Shown here: piece after piece, positions 22,367 to 38,325 of the stretch
How positions within the stretch are numbered: position 1 is the stretch's first letter
Layout: every line of letters starts with the position of its first letter
Source: an uncultured Saprospiraceae bacterium
Lineage (GTDB): Bacteria > Bacteroidota > Bacteroidia > Chitinophagales > Saprospiraceae
DNA: 64,000 nt
Reading direction: 5' to 3'
NCBI GenBank assembly: GCA_937929945.1
Contig: CALFUK010000060.1
Location: 1 to 64,000 of the forward strand
Position numbers and translations under genes: made by a program
The notes under the pieces: generated by a model
Seen by the model: only the letters and a program-made list of their open reading frames with translations
Told to the model about the DNA's origin: nothing
The model's database searches: none

Positions 22367-22675
22367 ATTAATTAACACCTTTAAACTGCATTCCAAAGAT
22401 AGGGCTGGTGATCATATATACAAAGTGTATGGCACTACAAGCACACCTCAGGACCCCTACAGAATGACCACACATATAAGATATATCTAACCTATTAACC
22501 ATTTTAACAGGATTAATTAAATAGATAGGTCATATTCATAGTGAAAAAAACCTAAACCCTCAATTTTTCTAACATTACATCCGATATATCAAACTTTACT
22601 ACCGAAAATAGCTTCTCGGGCAGCATCATGGATGGCATAACCAATCATAAAGCCCAACGTGAGAGAGCTATTCAT

Positions 22676-31402: not shown

Positions 31403-31684
31403 GAAACGTCTATGACGTTGATAATTAATACACCCAAGTGGATGATAAATCCTTAGTTATTTGCTGATTGGCACTTCGCCTTGAAATTTAAACCTATGAA
31501 ACGTCTATGACGTGGATAATTAAGACACCCAAGTGGATGATAAATCCTTAGTTATTTGCTGATTGGCATTTCGCCTTGAAAATTTAAACCTACGAAACGT
31601 CAATGCCGTAGATAATTTAGACAACCACATGGAGCCTCTACTTTAATTATTTACAGATTGGTATTTCGTCAAAAATTTAATATT
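31403..31684 (+). repeat. triple 94-bp-type repeat, array B
   Basis: Copies start at 31403, 31498 and 31594 (95 and 96 bp apart). The first two closely match array A (GAAACGTCTATGACGT, CACCCAAGTGGATGATAAA, TTTGCTGATTGGCA); the third is diverged. The end of the third copy, CAAAAATTTAATATT, runs directly into the ATG of the cupredoxin-like gene, so the array forms its 5' untranslated region or promoter. The stretch 31201-31402 before it holds nothing recognised. Confidence 0.88.
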
Positions 31685-32653
31685 ATGAAATTGAATATTG
31701 CAAAATTAATCGCTGTCATCTTTATCGCACTACTCTATACACAGATGAGTGCTCAGACACAAAACATCAAACTCATACAAGAGCCAGGTGTCTTTACCAC
31801 AACATCACTGGAGCTCACTGAGGGAGACTACCAGTTTGAGATTGCTAATCAAGGTGTCGGTCATGAGGTCGGATTCGTCTTAGTTCCCAAGGGAAAATAC
31901 GACGCTGCTCACCACATCAAGGAAGCCTACGTCACGGCTGCAGTACCAGCAGGTAGCTCATCCCTAACAAAAGTAGTATCTCTAAGTACTGGAGAATACG
32001 AATACTTCTGCCCGCTGAACCCCACTGCTAAATACCCACTGACAGTGGCTGATGGCGTGAAGAATGTCAAACTGACACAAACACCAGGGAAATTCCAAAA
32101 CGAATCAGTATCGCTGGGTGAAGGCCAATACCAATTTGAGATCATCAATGATGGTGTCAATCATGAAGTAGGATTCGTGTTGGTGCCTAAAGGTAAATAT
32201 GACGCAGCTGATCACATTAAGGCTGCCTACGTTAAGACACCCGTAGCGCCTGGCAAATCATCACTAACCAGTGTGGTCAATCTTTCTGCAGGTGAGTACG
32301 AATATTTCTGCCCACTCAATCCAACTGAGAAATACCCGCTGACCGTATCAGATAAGGTGCAGTCCGTCAAGCTGACACAGACTCCAGGTAAGTTCGCTAA
32401 CGAAGTCGTCAGTCTATCAGCAGGCCAATACCAGTTCGAAATCGTAAACGATGGTGTCAATCATGAAGTCGGCTTCGTACTAGTGCCTAAAGGTAAATAT
32501 GACGCAGCTGATCACATCAAAGCTGCCTATGTGAAGGCTCCTGTAGCTAAAGGCACCTCTTCACTGACGGATGTCGTGACGCTATCGGCAGGATCATACG
32601 AATATTTCTGTCCGCTCAATCCGACTGAAAAGTATGCCTTGGAAGTTAAATAA
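31685..32653 (+). CDS. secreted protein of three tandem cupredoxin-like domains
   Basis: A 322-residue protein. ATG at 31685 gives a clear signal peptide (MKLNIAKLIAVIFIALLYTQ); the frame opens earlier at 31658 but inside the repeat. The mature part is three near-identical 100-residue domains, 300 bp apart in DNA, each running from VKLTQTPGKF... through GQYQFEIVNDGVNHEVGFVLVPKGKYD to GEYEYFCPLNPTEKYPL. This is a plastocyanin-like fold: His in NHEVGF and Cys in YFCPLNPT correspond to two type 1 copper ligands, but the His and Met that normally follow the Cys are absent. It may bind copper atypically or not at all. Recent duplication is evident from high identity. Own terminator downstream. Confidence 0.85.
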   Translation: MKLNIAKLIAVIFIALLYTQMSAQTQNIKLIQEPGVFTTTSLELTEGDYQFEIANQGVGHEVGFVLVPKGKYDAAHHIKEAYVTAAVPAGSSSLTKVVSLSTGEYEYFCPLNPTAKYPLTVADGVKNVKLTQTPGKFQNESVSLGEGQYQFEIINDGVNHEVGFVLVPKGKYDAADHIKAAYVKTPVAPGKSSLTSVVNLSAGEYEYFCPLNPTEKYPLTVSDKVQSVKLTQTPGKFANEVVSLSAGQYQFEIVNDGVNHEVGFVLVPKGKYDAADHIKAAYVKAPVAKGTSSLTDVVTLSAGSYEYFCPLNPTEKYALEVK

Positions 32654-32744: not shown

Positions 32745-34961
32745 TCACAGCACCGTAAAGGTCCCCTTCATGGTCCGGCTCGTCGGCCTTCTAAACTCGC
32801 GCAACTCTATCTCTATGATGTAAGCATAAACGCCAGGCTCGATCATATCACCTCCGAATAAACCATCCCAAGAGATGTCAACTCCTTGAGATTCGTAGAC
32901 CTGACTCCCCCAGCGATCAAAAACAAGCATTGAGACAGCATCAAATTCGCAATTGGAGAGAGGACCCAAGCTGTCATTCACCGAATCTCCATTAGGTGAA
33001 AAAGCATTAGGGACATAGACAAAGCAAGAATCGCAATCATCAAAGGTAAGCGCACCCATGAGATTAGTAGAGCTGGATGATGTGCCACATACATCTGTAA
33101 ATGCATCTGAGGATTCGCTAAAATCAAAGCTGTAGTTACCATCAGAATTGATCACCGACCCTAAATCTAAGCTGATCATTGCACTAAGGTCACAGTCAAA
33201 GCTAGAAGGCGTCAAGGAGATATCTCTACCACCATAGTTCAGATTCATCATAGCACCTGCCGCACTCGCGCAGCTGACTTCTTTAGAAAAACGAAGCGTC
33301 ATCGACTGAACATTACAAGAATCTGGGAAGCTGACATCAGTAATCATGGGTGCATCGAGCATCAGATCAACAGTAATCCCCAATGAGCCTGAAGCAGAGG
33401 GGACGCCGCATAGGGTAAGTACTTCATCGACACCATTAGCGATCAGTGATAAGTCATAGTCGCCATTAATAGAGAGCGCTTCGTCCAGCTCTAAGGTCAG
33501 CTCTGTCAGGCTCATGGGTGATGCTGTATTACAGTCGCTATCTACGATAGTACCCGTCACCATCCTGCCCTGATAGGCTACTGCTAGATTTGCACTGCTG
33601 ATAGAACTGCAGATGACAGGTTGGCTGAATGAAAGTTGCAGCTCTCTGATGGCACAGTCAGTGCTCCAGTCTGCTGACTGTATTCTGGCTCCATCCTGAG
33701 ATTCTTTGAGAAATATCGTCATGATATCTCCACTGAGCGGCAGTAAGCATTCATTCGTCAAATCAAATCCTGGAACCCGATTGATGAACAATTGGTATTC
33801 TCCATTTTCCAGCTGAGGCTGATCAAACTCAAAGACAAAGCTGCTACTGGATACACAATTATCGACCATGGTGGTTCCATTAATAAATCCATCAGGACCT
33901 GTGACAGTGAATGAATTACCTGTGACTCCCGCGCAGAGCATGGCTTGAGAAAAATTAATGGTGACTGAATTTATCTGGCATGGATCATCGGGCACAACAT
34001 CCACTAAGGAGGGAGCGCCCCCATCATTCGTCACTTGAAAGGGTGCTCTCACATCACCTGTGCTATTGTCACAGAGATCAGTCACAGCTCGTCCTGCAGT
34101 AGGCTCGATTTGCAGTTCATTCATTCCAGTAGCTGTGAGAGGCTGAATAAAACTAACCTGAAAGCGACTATCTGAGGTGCCACCTTGATCACATATTTCA
34201 GAAGTGACAGTCCCAATGTTTGCAGGATCTCCATTAAGTGAAATATTCTCTACGGCAATAGAGCTACACTTTATATTTTCAGAGAATAACACTTCTACTG
34301 TCGACACTGCACAGCCTTGATCAGCTACGACATCTGCTACAGCAGGATTCACATTATCGATGATCCCAATGTCACCTGACAGGCTAAAGTCTATGGTGTA
34401 CCCTCCTTCTTCTCGATCAAAGTTAGATACAGTAAGGACATAAGTATTACCAGCCTCGACATCTATAAAATCATTAAATGGGTTCTGCCCTAAATCATTC
34501 GTCGGTACAGTAGCACCACAATTGCCACCCTGCTTAGAAAAGGATGATCCACCGTTAGCTCCAGTATCACCCTCACAAAGTGGACCTCCGGCAGAGTTAC
34601 AGCTCACTAATAAACTTCGATCTGAGAATATATCAGCACATGACGCATTTGTCAGGTTATACATCGACCAGTCATAATCTACAGAAGCATTATTAGGCTT
34701 GATGATAAATCCGAATTTACCCGTCCGATTTACGGTGAACGAATACCAGATATTTTTAATCTCCACCTGGATACAACTGATATCAGGATTAATCTCGTTT
34801 GGGAAAAAACCTTCATCAGTAGGTACGATGATCTCCTCATACACGTCATTACAGACAGGTGTGGCTCCAATACAGTCTGTATTGGTGATCTGTGCTGATA
34901 GAGAGAAGTGAAAACCCAAAAAGCAAATACACATAGATATGACAGCCAGTAATCGATTCAT
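32745..34961 (-). CDS. secreted multidomain protein with T9SS type B (gliding-motility) C-terminus
   Basis: A 738-residue exported protein (MNRLLAVISMCICFLGFHFSLSAQ signal). Residues 25-210 form an N-terminal jelly-roll-like region seen in many Saprospiria exoproteins (NTDCIGATPVCNDVYEE ... DRSLLVSCNSAGGPLC). From about 215 to 640 there are four repeats of roughly 100 residues resembling SbsA/Ig-like domains, each with a VxFSx...CSS-type start (VLFSENIKCSSI, INFSQAMLCAGV, LSFSQPVICSSI, LRFSKEVSCASA). The last 90 residues are the gliding-motility-associated C-terminal domain (YVPNAFSPNGDSVNDSLGP ... FDRWGSQVYES ... GVYAYIIEI), the T9SS type B signal that anchors proteins on the surface. Probably an adhesin. 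Confidence 0.9.
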   Translation of the reverse strand: MNRLLAVISMCICFLGFHFSLSAQITNTDCIGATPVCNDVYEEIIVPTDEGFFPNEINPDISCIQVEIKNIWYSFTVNRTGKFGFIIKPNNASVDYDWSMYNLTNASCADIFSDRSLLVSCNSAGGPLCEGDTGANGGSSFSKQGGNCGATVPTNDLGQNPFNDFIDVEAGNTYVLTVSNFDREEGGYTIDFSLSGDIGIIDNVNPAVADVVADQGCAVSTVEVLFSENIKCSSIAVENISLNGDPANIGTVTSEICDQGGTSDSRFQVSFIQPLTATGMNELQIEPTAGRAVTDLCDNSTGDVRAPFQVTNDGGAPSLVDVVPDDPCQINSVTINFSQAMLCAGVTGNSFTVTGPDGFINGTTMVDNCVSSSSFVFEFDQPQLENGEYQLFINRVPGFDLTNECLLPLSGDIMTIFLKESQDGARIQSADWSTDCAIRELQLSFSQPVICSSISSANLAVAYQGRMVTGTIVDSDCNTASPMSLTELTLELDEALSINGDYDLSLIANGVDEVLTLCGVPSASGSLGITVDLMLDAPMITDVSFPDSCNVQSMTLRFSKEVSCASAAGAMMNLNYGGRDISLTPSSFDCDLSAMISLDLGSVINSDGNYSFDFSESSDAFTDVCGTSSSSTNLMGALTFDDCDSCFVYVPNAFSPNGDSVNDSLGPLSNCEFDAVSMLVFDRWGSQVYESQGVDISWDGLFGGDMIEPGVYAYIIEIELREFRRPTSRTMKGTFTVL

Positions 34962-35237: not shown

Positions 35238-35268
35238 TTTGATAAGTGTGATAAATGATATAGCTTTG
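35238..35268 (+). promoter_or_regulatory. promoter of the phe/tyr operon
   Basis: TTTG at 35238-35241 and TAGCTTTG at 35261-35268 with a 19-bp spacer fit the Bacteroidota consensus. The start site would lie near 35275, about 10 nt before the leader peptide ATG. Confidence 0.75.
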
Positions 35269-35284
35269 CCTTCAGACATTAGTT

Positions 35285-35347
35285 ATGAAATCTTTTTCTT
35301 TTAGCAGCTATTTTTTCTTCTATTACTTTTTTAGCAAAAAGCGATAA
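35285..35347 (+). CDS. phenylalanine/tyrosine leader peptide
   Basis: A 20-codon open frame, MKSFSFSSYFFFYYFFSKKR, ending in TAA at 35345-35347. Seven of 20 residues are Phe and three Tyr, with eight aromatic residues in the stretch 9-16. It lies between a consensus promoter and a terminator hairpin, upstream of pheA, exactly as expected of a ribosome-stalling leader of an amino-acid attenuator. When charged tRNA-Phe or tRNA-Tyr is scarce, ribosomes should stall in the run and leave the downstream RNA free to form the antiterminator. Confidence 0.85.
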   Translation: MKSFSFSSYFFFYYFFSKKR

Positions 35348-35418
35348 GGAACCCTTGTTATTAGAAAACAAAAAATAAACGAAAGGAGGCCTTATTCAAA
35401 ATAAGGGCTCCTTTTTTG
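35344..35418 (+). promoter_or_regulatory. transcription attenuator of the phe/tyr operon
   Basis: Terminator: AAAGGAG-G-CCTTAT (35382-35395) pairs with ATAAGG-G-CTCCTTT (35401-35414) with a single G-G mismatch and five-base loop, followed by T. Antiterminator: ATAAGG at 35344-35349, which overlaps the stop codon of the leader peptide, is complementary to CCTTAT at 35390-35395 in the terminator's left arm. A ribosome that reaches the stop codon covers 35344-35349 and lets the terminator form; one stalled on the Phe/Tyr codons leaves it free to pair. The pheA start is 16 bp beyond the hairpin. Confidence 0.82.
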
Positions 35419-35433
35419 CTTTAGCATATATAG

Positions 35434-36297
35434 ATGAGTGTAGATAAAAAGATAATCATTCAAGGTATCAAGGGCTGCTTTCACCAAGAAGCGGCACAAA
35501 AATACTTCGACACCACAGCGGTAGACACTGTCCCATCTGACTCCTTCGATCAGCTGGCTGACATCCTGCAAGCTCATGAGTCAGATCATCTGGCGATCAT
35601 GGCCATCGAAAATTCGATAGCAGGCAGCTTACTGCAGAACTACCGCATCCTCCGAGAGAGAGAATTCAAAGTGGTCGGAGAAGTGTATCTACGTATCAAA
35701 CATAACCTCATGGCCATCGCAGGGCAGACCATAGCAGATATCAGAGAGGTCAGCTCACACCCCATGGCGATCAATCAGTGTCTCGAATATTTTGCACAAT
35801 ATCCTAACATCAAACTTATCAAGTCAGAAGACACCGCACTGGCAGCGAGGCAGGTGGCAGAAAAAGCCACACCAGGCATTGGTGCAATTGCCAGCAAATC
35901 CGCAGCTGAGATCTATGGATTGGACATCATCGGAAAAGGCATAGAGACCTCTAAAGAAAATTACACCCGATTCTTCATCATCCAAGGCAAAAACCAAGTT
36001 AAGGAAATCGACCCGCTGTACAATAAAGCTTCGATATACATCAGAGTACTGGACCAACCTGGATGTTTACTCAAGGCCATGGACATTATTGCGGAGCATC
36101 ACATTAATATCAGTAAGCTCCAGTCCTACCCCGTCTTAGGCAAGCTGAATGAATATTACTTTTATCTGGATTTAGAATTTGCAGAAGCTGGTCAGTATGA
36201 GGCAGTCATGGAGCTACTTCCGACAGTGACCACAGTACTAAAAGAATTAGGAACCTATCAAAAAGCGAGTGTATATGATCATCAAGCCATCATTTAG
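35434..36297 (+). CDS. pheA: prephenate dehydratase
   Basis: Converts prephenate to phenylpyruvate in phenylalanine synthesis. The 287-residue cytosolic protein has a periplasmic-binding-like catalytic domain (1-180) with IQGIKGCFHQEAAQKYF, MAIENSIAGSLLQNY (catalytic ENS), VSSHPMAINQC and the key TRFFII motif (about 185), then a C-terminal ACT domain (about 195-275; ASIYIRVLDQPGCLLKAMDI, with SKLQSYP in place of the usual ESRP). The ACT domain usually gives feedback inhibition by Phe. No chorismate mutase is fused here; that activity sits on the last gene of the operon. First structural gene after the attenuator; overlaps the aminotransferase gene by 23 bp. Confidence 0.95.
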   Translation: MSVDKKIIIQGIKGCFHQEAAQKYFDTTAVDTVPSDSFDQLADILQAHESDHLAIMAIENSIAGSLLQNYRILREREFKVVGEVYLRIKHNLMAIAGQTIADIREVSSHPMAINQCLEYFAQYPNIKLIKSEDTALAARQVAEKATPGIGAIASKSAAEIYGLDIIGKGIETSKENYTRFFIIQGKNQVKEIDPLYNKASIYIRVLDQPGCLLKAMDIIAEHHINISKLQSYPVLGKLNEYYFYLDLEFAEAGQYEAVMELLPTVTTVLKELGTYQKASVYDHQAII

Positions 36298-37462
36298 AAT
36301 AGGGCAAGTCAAGACATACTACTTCGCGACGAAGCTGGCACAGATAGCCGCGATGAGGACCATGGGTAAGGATGTCATCAATCTTGGCATAGGCAGCCCT
36401 GATCTGAAGCCACCACAAGAAATCATCGACACGCTCCAAGCCGCCTCTACGGGAGAGATGGCTAATCAGTATCAAAGCTATAAAGGAGTTGCAGCCTTAA
36501 GGCAAGGCTTTGCGGAATGGTATGATAGATGGTTTGGCGTGACTCTCGATGCTGACACAGAAGTGCTGCCACTGATCGGATCTAAAGAAGGCATCATGCA
36601 CATATCCATGGCCTTTCTCAATGAAGGAGATGAAGTGCTCGTGCCCAATCCTGGATATCCAGCCTACCGTATGGCCAGTAAGCTAGCCGGAGCCACAGTG
36701 AGGCATTTTGACCTCAGAGCTGATACTGGCTGGAGACCAGACTTAGCCAAGCTCAGAAAGCAGGACCTCAGCAAAGTCAAAATCATGTGGATCAACTATC
36801 CTAACATGCCTACTGGAGCCAAAGCAGATCTATCATTATTCGAAGACATCATTGCCTTTGGAAGAGAGCAAGGCATCTTGATCTGTCATGATAATCCCTA
36901 TGGATTCATTCTGAATGAAGAGCCGATCAGCATCATGCAGGTAGCGGGAGCAGCAGAGGTCGCCATCGAGCTAAATTCTCTGAGTAAGTGCTTCAATATG
37001 GCTGGCTGGAGAGTCGGCGTCATGGTAGGCCAAGCAGAGTACATCAATGCCGTCATGACATTCAAAAGTAATATGGACAGCGGCATGTACCAGCCCATCC
37101 AGCTGGCAGCAGTCAAAGCACTGTCACTAGATCAATCATGGTTTGACCAGCTAAATGATGTCTATCGGCAAAGAAGAGAAATCGCCTGGAAGATGATGGA
37201 CCTACTCAGCTGTAACTATGATAAAGAGTCGGCAGGACTATTCGTCTGGGGCTTAGTACCAGAGTCAGTCTTCGATGTAGAGAGCTGGATCGAGACGATA
37301 CTACAAGAGGCTCTGGTATTCATCACGCCTGGATTTATCTTTGGCGATAATGGTGACCGGTATATCAGGATATCCCTGTGCTGTGATCTGGAAAAACTGA
37401 CGGAAGCTCTTAAAAGAGTGGCTGTTTTATTAGAGAAACAAAAGCAAAAAGTAGAGGGATGA
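36275..37462 (+). CDS. class I/II aminotransferase of the aromatic amino-acid operon
   Basis: A PLP-dependent fold-type I aminotransferase of about 395 residues. Signatures: NLGIGSPDLKPP, NPGYPAYRMASKLAG, WINYPNMPTGAKA (the NP.NPTG region, here YPNMPTG), ICHDNPYGFI, and the Schiff-base Lys in ELNSLSKCFNMAGWRVG (about 232). In this operon it most likely transaminates phenylpyruvate and 4-hydroxyphenylpyruvate to Phe and Tyr, or prephenate. I place the start at ATG 36275; the frame also has a GTG at 36269. It overlaps pheA by 23 bp and tyrA by four (ATGA), so all are translationally coupled. Confidence 0.92.
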   Translation: MIIKPSFRIGQVKTYYFATKLAQIAAMRTMGKDVINLGIGSPDLKPPQEIIDTLQAASTGEMANQYQSYKGVAALRQGFAEWYDRWFGVTLDADTEVLPLIGSKEGIMHISMAFLNEGDEVLVPNPGYPAYRMASKLAGATVRHFDLRADTGWRPDLAKLRKQDLSKVKIMWINYPNMPTGAKADLSLFEDIIAFGREQGILICHDNPYGFILNEEPISIMQVAGAAEVAIELNSLSKCFNMAGWRVGVMVGQAEYINAVMTFKSNMDSGMYQPIQLAAVKALSLDQSWFDQLNDVYRQRREIAWKMMDLLSCNYDKESAGLFVWGLVPESVFDVESWIETILQEALVFITPGFIFGDNGDRYIRISLCCDLEKLTEALKRVAVLLEKQKQKVEG

Positions 37463-38325
37463 AGCTGTGTGTCATAGGATTAGGACTTATCGGAGGATCG
37501 ATTGCTAAAGAGTGCAGGAGCTTAGGCTATGAAGTCGTCGGCGTCGATGAAAACCCAATGCATCAAGAGAAAGCCATTGACTTTGGCCTGGTGGATCGCA
37601 TCGAGACAATAGAATCAGCTCTGATGATGAGTGACGTATTCTGCATCGCGATACCAGTGGATGCCGTAGAAGCAGTGAGCCTTTCGTTATTGGATCAGAT
37701 CAAGTGGACACAGACCATCTTTGACGTGGGCTCAACTAAGGCTAATGTCTGTGCAGCTGTGAAAACACATCCGAAGAGATCTCGCTTTGTGGCAGCTCAC
37801 CCCTTAGCTGGGACAGAGTTCTCAGGGCCAGGGGCAGCCATCCTAAATCTATTCAGAGGCAAGAAAAATATCGTCACAGACGAAGACCTCTCTGATGAAG
37901 ACGCCCTGGAGTCAGTCCTCACCATCTTCAATGACTTGGGCATGCAGTCTCTCTTCATGCAGTCTGAGGCACATGACCGACACATGGCCTACGTCTCGCA
38001 CCTGTCCCACGTGAGTGCCTTCACACTGAGTCTGACTGTACTGGACATAGAGCAGGACCAAAAGCAAATATTTAATCTGGCGAGTACTGGATTCGAAAGT
38101 ACTGTCCGGCTGGCTAAAAGTAATCCAGAAACATGGGCCTCTATTTTTGATAAAAACTCATCACATCTGTCAGACGCATTAGATGGATACATCCGCCACC
38201 TGCAGCACTTTAAGCAGGTCATCGAAAGTGGTGACAAGGTAGCTGCGAAAGAACTCATGCAAAAGGCAAATGAAATCAAAAGAGTACTGAATGGCCTCAA
38301 AATGAACGTGGTCAAACTGAGCTAA
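37459..38325 (+). CDS. tyrA: prephenate dehydrogenase
   Basis: Oxidatively decarboxylates prephenate to 4-hydroxyphenylpyruvate using NAD(P), the tyrosine branch. The 288-residue product begins with a Rossmann fold, CVIGLGLIGGSIAKECRSLG, with an acidic residue after the second strand (VVGVDENP), suggesting NAD preference. Further signatures are FDVGSTKANVC, FVAAHPLAGTEFSGPGAA (catalytic His region) and HDRHMAYVSHLSHVSAFTL. A long C-terminal helical dimerisation domain follows; there is no ACT domain. Starts inside the aminotransferase stop codon. Confidence 0.95.
   Translation: MKLCVIGLGLIGGSIAKECRSLGYEVVGVDENPMHQEKAIDFGLVDRIETIESALMMSDVFCIAIPVDAVEAVSLSLLDQIKWTQTIFDVGSTKANVCAAVKTHPKRSRFVAAHPLAGTEFSGPGAAILNLFRGKKNIVTDEDLSDEDALESVLTIFNDLGMQSLFMQSEAHDRHMAYVSHLSHVSAFTLSLTVLDIEQDQKQIFNLASTGFESTVRLAKSNPETWASIFDKNSSHLSDALDGYIRHLQHFKQVIESGDKVAAKELMQKANEIKRVLNGLKMNVVKLS

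What the first reader, a model, noticed from the sequence alone, without database searches (positions are those of the whole stretch)
35238..35418. Complete ribosome-mediated attenuator for phenylalanine/tyrosine genes
A consensus promoter, a 20-residue leader with seven Phe and three Tyr, a strong terminator before pheA, and an antiterminator segment (35344-35349 complementary to 35390-35395) that overlaps the leader's stop codon fit together as a textbook attenuator. Such leaders are well known in Proteobacteria; one reading both Phe and Tyr in this phylum would be a valuable example.
Basis: partly seen in the sequence, partly recalled or inferred. Interest (0 to 1): 0.8.

Follow-up and report, generated by a model that had tools for sequence, protein, structure and literature searches.

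The report
Phe/Tyr leader-peptide attenuator before pheA
This stretch looks like a real genetic switch that lets a Bacteroidota bacterium make its phenylalanine and tyrosine enzymes only when those amino acids run short, and matching switches sit in front of the same genes in many other members of the class Bacteroidia.

Summary
A 20-codon leader (35285-35347; 7 Phe, 3 Tyr) lies between a Bacteroidota-type promoter (35238-35268) and an intrinsic terminator (35383-35417). It precedes pheA - aminotransferase - tyrA - DAHP synthase/chorismate mutase. Nearest named relatives are uncultured Saprospiraceae.

An aromatic-rich leader plus terminator precedes pheA in 23 of 29 relatives, 72 of 80 named loci, 26 of 31 class-level loci and 2 of 39 loci of other classes, but 1 of 298 other genes. 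The antiterminator strand pairs with its own terminator arm far better than with other loci's arms (mean rank 0.103; four control stretches 0.48-0.61).

One refinement: the steadier feature is the distance from the last aromatic codon (about 13 nt), not overlap with the stop codon. In the window alone the pairing is not above shuffles; its support is comparative.

The mechanism is classical ribosome-mediated attenuation. No Rfam family reaches gathering score in the window or 20 relatives. A structured element before pheA in Flavobacteriaceae is already in print. The least expected part lies outside the window: two such units in series, with different codon content, in Chitinophaga.

The parts
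35238..35268 (+). Bacteroidota-type promoter: TTTG, 19 nt, TAnnTTTG (TAGCTTTG 35261-35268)
   Evidence: 2 exact matches in the window against 0.17 expected; motif TAnnTTTG near 45 of 99 non-redundant leader starts, 7.0 expected from letter shuffles. That this is the Bacteroidota consensus is recalled.
35285..35347 (+). leader peptide ORF MKSFSFSSYFFFYYFFSKKR*, 7 Phe and 3 Tyr codons
   Evidence: none of 2000 shuffles as aromatic; similar leaders in relatives
35343..35356 (+). antiterminator strand (segment 2), overlapping the leader stop codon
   Evidence: pairs with 35383-35396, -9.2 kcal/mol in the nascent RNA; family-level own-versus-cross pairing
35343..35359 (+). local hairpin GAUAAGG/CCUUGUU, -4.9 kcal/mol, that competes with the antiterminator
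   Evidence: role inferred
35383..35396 (+). segment 3: terminator left arm, alternative partner of segment 2
35383..35417 (+). intrinsic terminator: hairpin 35383-35413 and run of six T (35412-35417)
   Evidence: -16.4 kcal/mol, z -3.0, 1 of 200 shuffles as stable
35434..36297 (+). pheA, prephenate dehydratase
   Evidence: Pfam PF00800 E 4.9e-53; best NCBIfam model is prephenate dehydratase, 191 bits, below its cut-off of 219
36275..37462 (+). class I/II aminotransferase
   Evidence: Pfam PF00155 E 6e-54
37459..38325 (+). tyrA, prephenate dehydrogenase
   Evidence: NCBIfam NF006307 313.7 bits, cut-off 295; PF02153 and PF20463
38372..39457 (+). DAHP synthase fused to type II chorismate mutase
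   Evidence: PF00793 and PF01817

Best explanation
A ribosome-mediated transcription attenuator of the pheA-aminotransferase-tyrA-DAHPS/CM operon. RNA polymerase starts a few nt after 35268 and a ribosome follows on the short leader. When Phe-tRNA and Tyr-tRNA are charged, the ribosome runs through the aromatic codons to the stop at 35345-35347. It covers segment 2 (35343-35356), so segment 3 pairs with segment 4, the terminator forms, and transcription ends before pheA. When either charged tRNA is scarce, the ribosome stalls in the Phe/Tyr run with its leading edge just short of segment 2. Segment 2 then captures segment 3 (35383-35396) before segment 4 is made, and RNA polymerase continues into the operon.

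Shown: the leader, the terminator, the alternative helix, their recurrence in relatives, and the locus-specific matching of segments 2 and 3. Inferred: that the leader is translated, that transcription and translation are coupled, that termination occurs in the cell, and that the signal is Phe/Tyr.
For: Leader with terminator in the window is rarely reproduced by shuffling.

Unit before pheA in 24 of 30 loci from the relatives search (the window plus 23 of 29 relatives), 72 of 80 named loci, 26 of 31 class-level loci and 2 of 39 loci of other classes; the counts are the same at score 2.2, and 21, 64, 20 and 1 at score 3.0. Controls: 1 of 298 upstream regions of other genes in the named loci and 0 of 34 in the window; 0 and 0 at 2.2 and 3.0.

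Segments 2 and 3 match within loci: 99 non-redundant units, own duplex mean -14.9 against -9.6 with other loci's arms and -8.3 for shuffles; mean cross-rank 0.103, 46 of 99 in the top 5%. Upstream, leader-head, spacer and downstream stretches gave 0.498, 0.517, 0.612 and 0.477 (n 99, 99, 59, 42).

The antiterminator core starts a median 13 nt after the last aromatic codon (IQR 11-15), close to the ribosome's edge (a passage of PMC4833913 gives up to 12 nt past the stop codon).

Codon content agrees with gene content: of 58 loci with tyrA and/or DAHPS behind pheA, 57 have at least 2 Tyr codons; of 12 with neither detected, 11 have fewer.

In two rearranged clusters the leader sits before the DAHPS gene that now comes first (gene names).
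Against: In the window alone the antiterminator pairing is ordinary: shuffle p 0.257, cross-rank 0.15. At equilibrium the terminator plus the local hairpin (-21.5) beats the forced antiterminator (-9.8) by about 12 kcal/mol, so antitermination would have to be kinetic.

By eye no Shine-Dalgarno-like stretch precedes the leader start. No transcript, ribosome profile or reporter was seen. Over half of the 99 units lack the exact promoter motif near the leader (45 have it).

11 of the 12 loci with neither tyrA nor DAHPS are Marinifilaceae by title, so the codon-to-gene agreement rests on essentially one evolutionary change, and three of these (L086, L093, L106) have a doubtful choice of leader frame. 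tyrA was sought only by tblastn with the window's protein.

6 of 30, 8 of 80 and 5 of 31 loci lack a unit. In five of the nineteen the sequence upstream is short (L008, L045, L067, L077, L083); in seven pheA follows another gene closely (L017, L026, L129, L144, L149, L153, L166, by eye). L005, L014, L028, L047 and L056 have neither excuse; L061 has a leader that the cut dropped; L058 is titled Bacteriovoracaceae.
Confidence: 0.93

Rival explanations
1. The aromatic ORF is a by-product of T-rich DNA, and the terminator simply ends transcripts or noise from upstream.
For: The leader codons are T-rich, and an ORF with a weaker aromatic score arises in 176 of 2000 shuffles. The window's own antiterminator is not special by shuffling.
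Against: None of 2000 shuffles reaches the observed score. Leader plus terminator recurs before pheA but before 1 of 298 other genes. Locus-specific matching of segment 2 to segment 3 is not expected without a function.
Confidence: 0.02
2. The leader senses general slowing of translation, or ribosome arrest by the nascent aromatic peptide, not the supply of Phe and Tyr.
For: Runs of aromatic residues could slow peptide bonds or the exit tunnel (inference).
Against: By eye the order of residues is not conserved between genera, only the aromatic content. Phe-only leaders occur in Marinifilum, where neither tyrA nor DAHPS was found behind pheA.
Confidence: 0.03
3. The 5' region also, or instead, controls translation or is a ligand-binding RNA, with the leader ORF secondary.
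For: Not excluded by sequence; no Rfam family matches at gathering score.
Against: The T run ends 16 nt before the pheA start and the alternative pairing targets the terminator arm. By eye no conserved block beyond promoter, leader, segment 2 and terminator appears among five close sequences.
Confidence: 0.02

Closest known systems
Rfam RF01859 Phe_leader
   Same: Phe leader with the same order of parts; the model aligns end to end (1-125 of 125) to 35284-35416. That it is the pheL-type leader of Proteobacteria is recalled.
   Different: 21.6 bits against a gathering score of 55, so not a member. The leader here also has Tyr codons and the operon carries tyrA and DAHPS.
Structured 5' element upstream of pheA in Flavobacterium psychrophilum and other Flavobacteriaceae (PMC9723704)
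   Same: Same gene, same phylum; the paper reports strong clues for leader-peptide attenuation before amino-acid operons and names a conserved pheA 5' element without an Rfam match (section 19; passages).
   Different: That section gives no leader sequence, codon content or antiterminator for pheA; its supplement could not be opened here. The window belongs to another family.
Bacteroid-trp RNA (RF01692)
   Same: Row in the motif table for Bacteroidetes (passage of PMC2864571); that it reads Trp codons is recalled.
   Different: Different operon; no gathering-score match in the window or in 20 relatives.
ilv and thr leaders of enterobacteria (recalled)
   Same: One leader reading several amino acids for a branched pathway.
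   Different: Other amino acids and another phylum.
Tandem attenuators of the Salmonella mgtCBR leader (PMC3641672, search listing only)
   Same: Two short ORFs in one leader.
   Different: Those do not control an amino-acid operon; the serial pairs noted here are in relatives, not in the window.

Membership tests
ribosome-mediated (leader-peptide) transcription attenuators | short leader ORF rich in codons for the operon's product | tested here: met
   7 Phe and 3 Tyr of 20 before pheA/tyrA; 0 of 2000 shuffles as aromatic
ribosome-mediated (leader-peptide) transcription attenuators | intrinsic terminator between leader and first gene | tested here: met
   -16.4 kcal/mol with T run; termination itself not measured
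ribosome-mediated (leader-peptide) transcription attenuators | alternative pairing that excludes the terminator, placed so that the ribosome's position decides | tested here: met
   met for the family of loci and present in the window; in the window alone the pairing is not above shuffles
ribosome-mediated (leader-peptide) transcription attenuators | readthrough rises when the cognate charged tRNA is scarce and needs leader translation | not testable with these tools
   needs reporters or RNA-seq
Rfam RF01859 Phe_leader | covariance-model score at or above the gathering score of 55 | tested here: not met
   21.6 bits at 35284-35416; no family passes in any of 20 related loci
Rfam RF01692 Bacteroid-trp | covariance-model score at or above its gathering score | tested here: not met
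   no gathering-score match of any family in the window or in 20 relatives

The most novel reading that the evidence does not exclude
An uncatalogued family of aromatic attenuators, widespread in Bacteroidia, that read Phe and Tyr, and often Trp, together. The codon set follows which branches the operon serves, and the leader can move to whichever gene heads the operon. In Chitinophaga and some Saprospiraceae two attenuators stand in series, mostly behind one promoter; in Chitinophaga their codon sets differ (Phe/Tyr/Trp, then Phe/Tyr), which would act as two gates for one operon. All this would mean close coupling of transcription and translation in a phylum that starts translation largely without Shine-Dalgarno pairing (the last point is recalled).
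Probability: 0.7. Interest if true: 0.62.

Novelty: new member of a known kind. Interest (0 to 1): 0.5.

Why it matters
Attenuators of this kind work only if a ribosome closely follows RNA polymerase. A recurrent family with a fairly steady spacing between the last sensed codon and the antiterminator gives a direct, testable handle on coupling in Bacteroidota. It also gives a rule for annotating leaders now left as intergenic sequence, and a comparative set in which sensed amino acids can be set against operon gene content.

Tried and rejected
Rfam at gathering score on the window and on 20 loci found nothing. At E up to 10 on 241 bases there were 27 rows, all below gathering score and most of them surely chance, with Phe_leader among them.

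The first terminator scan missed the window's own terminator because it tried only even lengths; it was redone. Nine of 158 leader-terminator pairs were dropped by the cut used from then on (terminator at or below -8.9 kcal/mol, 5-60 nt after the stop): rows of L044, L061 (two), L063, L070, L086, L093, L106 and L135. Some of the 149 kept rows are still doubtful: L039's first unit, and L086, L093 and L106, where a competing reading frame was taken as the leader.

The control regions were 400 nt long and the pheA regions up to 600 nt; every pheA locus counted also has its leader start within 400 nt.

The spacing result takes the last aromatic codon at least 6 nt before the helix, so very short distances could not appear; it is descriptive. 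A pause hairpin like that of the E. coli trp leader was not established in the window.

In the same genome no clear leader was seen before thrA or before the second ilvD-type gene. The Ile/Leu/Val score of that second gene's best ORF (4.55) is close to that of the first gene (4.92), so the ilvD leader rests on its terminator and pairing, read by eye. No aromatic leader was recognised at the head of the genes upstream of pheA in L188 and L189, nor in L190 and L191.

The F. psychrophilum paper came up; others (tyrosine codons, leader peptide, attenuation; Bacteroidota, attenuator, leader peptide) returned nothing. Lopatovskaya et al. 2010, a comparative survey of attenuation, was seen only as a citation and may already list such leaders.

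Full report
Observation. Bases 35285-35347 encode MKSFSFSSYFFFYYFFSKKR* with seven Phe and three Tyr. The promoter TTTG-N19-TAGCTTTG (35238-35268) has one other match in the window; 0.17 matches are expected. The terminator hairpin 35383-35413 folds at -16.4 kcal/mol and ends in a run of six T. Dinucleotide shuffling of the 472-nt intergenic stretch never gave so aromatic an ORF in 2000 trials; a weaker aromatic ORF appeared in 176 and was followed by a terminator in 2. The operon is pheA, an aminotransferase, tyrA and a DAHP synthase/chorismate mutase, which by established pathway knowledge serve both Phe and Tyr. The nearest named relatives are uncultured Saprospiraceae.

Alternative structure. 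It competes with a local hairpin 35343-35359 (-4.9). At equilibrium the full stretch prefers the terminator plus that hairpin (-21.5 against -9.8 with the antiterminator forced); the stretch downstream of a terminating ribosome folds into the terminator at -16.6. By shuffling, the window's pairing alone is unremarkable (p 0.257, cross-rank 0.15). The case therefore rests on relatives.

Conservation of leader and terminator. PF00800 was found in 34 of 60 genomes searched, the window's own included. Loci were given for 30: the window's and 29 of the 33 relatives with a match. With the final cut, 24 of these 30 carry an aromatic leader followed by a terminator; one of the six misses (L008) has only 120 nt upstream. 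Of 80 named loci kept from 530, 72 carry it; four of the eight misses are cut short (L045, L067, L077, L083). From the phylum draw (172 of 198 genomes with a match), 44 genomes of the same family, order or class had a match. I examined 31 of these as a group, and 26 carry a unit; three more (G008, G030, G055) are in the first set and carry one; ten were not looked at. Of genomes of other classes 39 were examined, 29 of them among the 30 best-scoring rows of that search, and 2 carry a unit. The counts are the same at a stricter leader score of 2.2 and fall to 21 of 30, 64 of 80, 20 of 31 and 1 of 39 at 3.0. The first two sets overlap: L031/L011, L032/L027, L033/L015 and L046/L003 match in contig length and leader. 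Upstream regions of other genes gave 1 of 298 in the named loci and 0 of 34 in the window, and 0 and 0 at 2.2 and 3.0.

Pairing test. From 149 units, 99 non-redundant ones were kept. The leader-end strand pairs with its own terminator arm at a mean -14.9 kcal/mol, with other loci's arms at -9.6, and after shuffling at -8.3. The mean rank of the own arm among all arms is 0.103, where 0.5 is expected; 46 of 99 are in the top 5%, and 74 of 99 have shuffle p of 0.05 or less. Four other stretches of the same loci, put through the same test, ranked 0.498 (n 99), 0.517 (n 99), 0.612 (n 59) and 0.477 (n 42). The paired strands differ between lineages, for example GGGAC/GUCCC, GGGGC/GCCCC, GCCGGGAC/GUCCCGGC, GGGAGG/CCUCCC and GAUAAGG/CCUUAUU (read), so both sides have changed together.

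Geometry. The antiterminator core begins a median 13 nt (IQR 11-15, sd 3.7, 98 units) after the first base of the last aromatic codon before it. Its distance to the stop codon has sd 10.3. In the window the first figure is 13 nt and the core overlaps the stop. A ribosome held at the last aromatic codon would about leave the strand free, and one that moves on would cover it. The choice of codon in that script excludes distances under 6 nt, so this is descriptive support.

Codon content and gene content. Of 70 named loci with a leader and at least 2.8 kb downstream, 58 have tyrA and/or DAHPS detected behind pheA, and 57 of these have at least two Tyr codons. Twelve have neither, and 11 of these have fewer than two Tyr codons. 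Those 11 are all Marinifilaceae by title (Marinifilum, Labilibaculum and one 'Marinifilaceae bacterium'), so this is essentially one change; the twelfth, L043, has an aminotransferase behind pheA and four Tyr codons. Among the 99 units, 92 have at least two Phe and two Tyr, 41 have a Trp codon and 4 have no Tyr.

Operon heads. In the five class-level loci without a unit pheA closely follows another gene (printed sequence); in the two looked at further these are an EPSP synthase gene (L187) and a thioesterase-like gene (L188). In L187 the cluster is DAHPS/CM, 3-dehydroquinate synthase, EPSP synthase, pheA, and an aromatic leader with a matching terminator stands before DAHPS/CM. The same holds in a same-family relative where DAHPS/CM precedes pheA (L186/L017). 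No such leader was recognised in L188 or L189; L129, L153 and L166 were not followed upstream.

Other leaders in the same genome. Upstream of hisG there is MIKTYTNTIHHHDLLRSE, upstream of trpE a leader with three Trp in a row, and upstream of one ilvD-type gene MIIVDINIIVAVT, each followed by a terminator-like hairpin read by eye from the printed sequence; no clear one was seen before thrA or the second ilvD-type gene. The window's attenuator is thus probably one of a set.

Series attenuators outside the window. Twenty-five loci carry two units by the cut; L039's first unit is doubtful. The motif TAnnTTTG lies before the first in 22 of 25 and before the second in 2 of 25 (counted from the table). 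In all nine Chitinophaga loci with two units the first leader has a Trp codon and the second has none; the tenth Chitinophaga locus (L083) has only 114 nt upstream.

Relation to known work. The arrangement matches the Phe_leader family in form but not in score (21.6 against 55 bits), and no Rfam family reaches its gathering score in the window or in 20 relatives. The F. psychrophilum transcriptome paper PMC9723704 (section 19 read) reports strong clues for leader-peptide attenuation before amino-acid operons and a structured element before pheA conserved in other Flavobacteriaceae. [quoted passage not shown] PMC7366714 (passages) mentions possible leader ORFs in Bacteroides thetaiotaomicron. 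PMC2864571 lists Bacteroid-trp (passage). I therefore call this a new member of a known kind: the mechanism is classical, the family is uncatalogued as far as these searches reach, and the phylum has prior hints.

Noticed in passing
L009, L010, L012, L016, L019-L022, L025, L053, L074, L090, L091, L100, L101, L103, L105, L107, L108 upstream of pheA: Two aromatic leader-terminator units in series, mostly with a promoter motif before the first only; in the nine Chitinophaga loci the first leader has Trp and the second does not.
   Followed up: partly
L181 (hisG), L182 (trpE), L183 (ilvD-type) of the window's own genome: Other leader peptides with runs of His, Trp and Ile/Val codons followed by terminator-like hairpins, read by eye.
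   Followed up: partly
L057, L060, L063-L065, L109 (Marinifilum): pheA with neither tyrA nor DAHPS detected behind it has a Phe-only leader.
   Followed up: partly
L009, L016, L018-L020, L022, L025 leader ends: Several leaders end in codons such as TATGGnnnnCCATAA (often Y-G-x-P), which form a small hairpin just before the antiterminator strand; the stem varies on both sides between loci (for example ACGC/GCGT). Seen by eye only.
   Followed up: no
L186 959-1033 and reverse complement of L187 3841-3936: Where DAHPS/CM heads the rearranged cluster, an aromatic leader with matching terminator stands before DAHPS/CM instead of pheA.
   Followed up: yes
window 31658-32653 (+): ORF with three similar repeats by eye; the first part matches Pfam Cupredoxin_1.
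   Followed up: no
window 32745-34961 (-): Divergent gene for a protein with a type IX secretion (type B) sorting domain.
   Followed up: no
window 22394-22424 (-): Second exact match to the TTTG-N19-TAnnTTTG promoter pattern.
   Followed up: no
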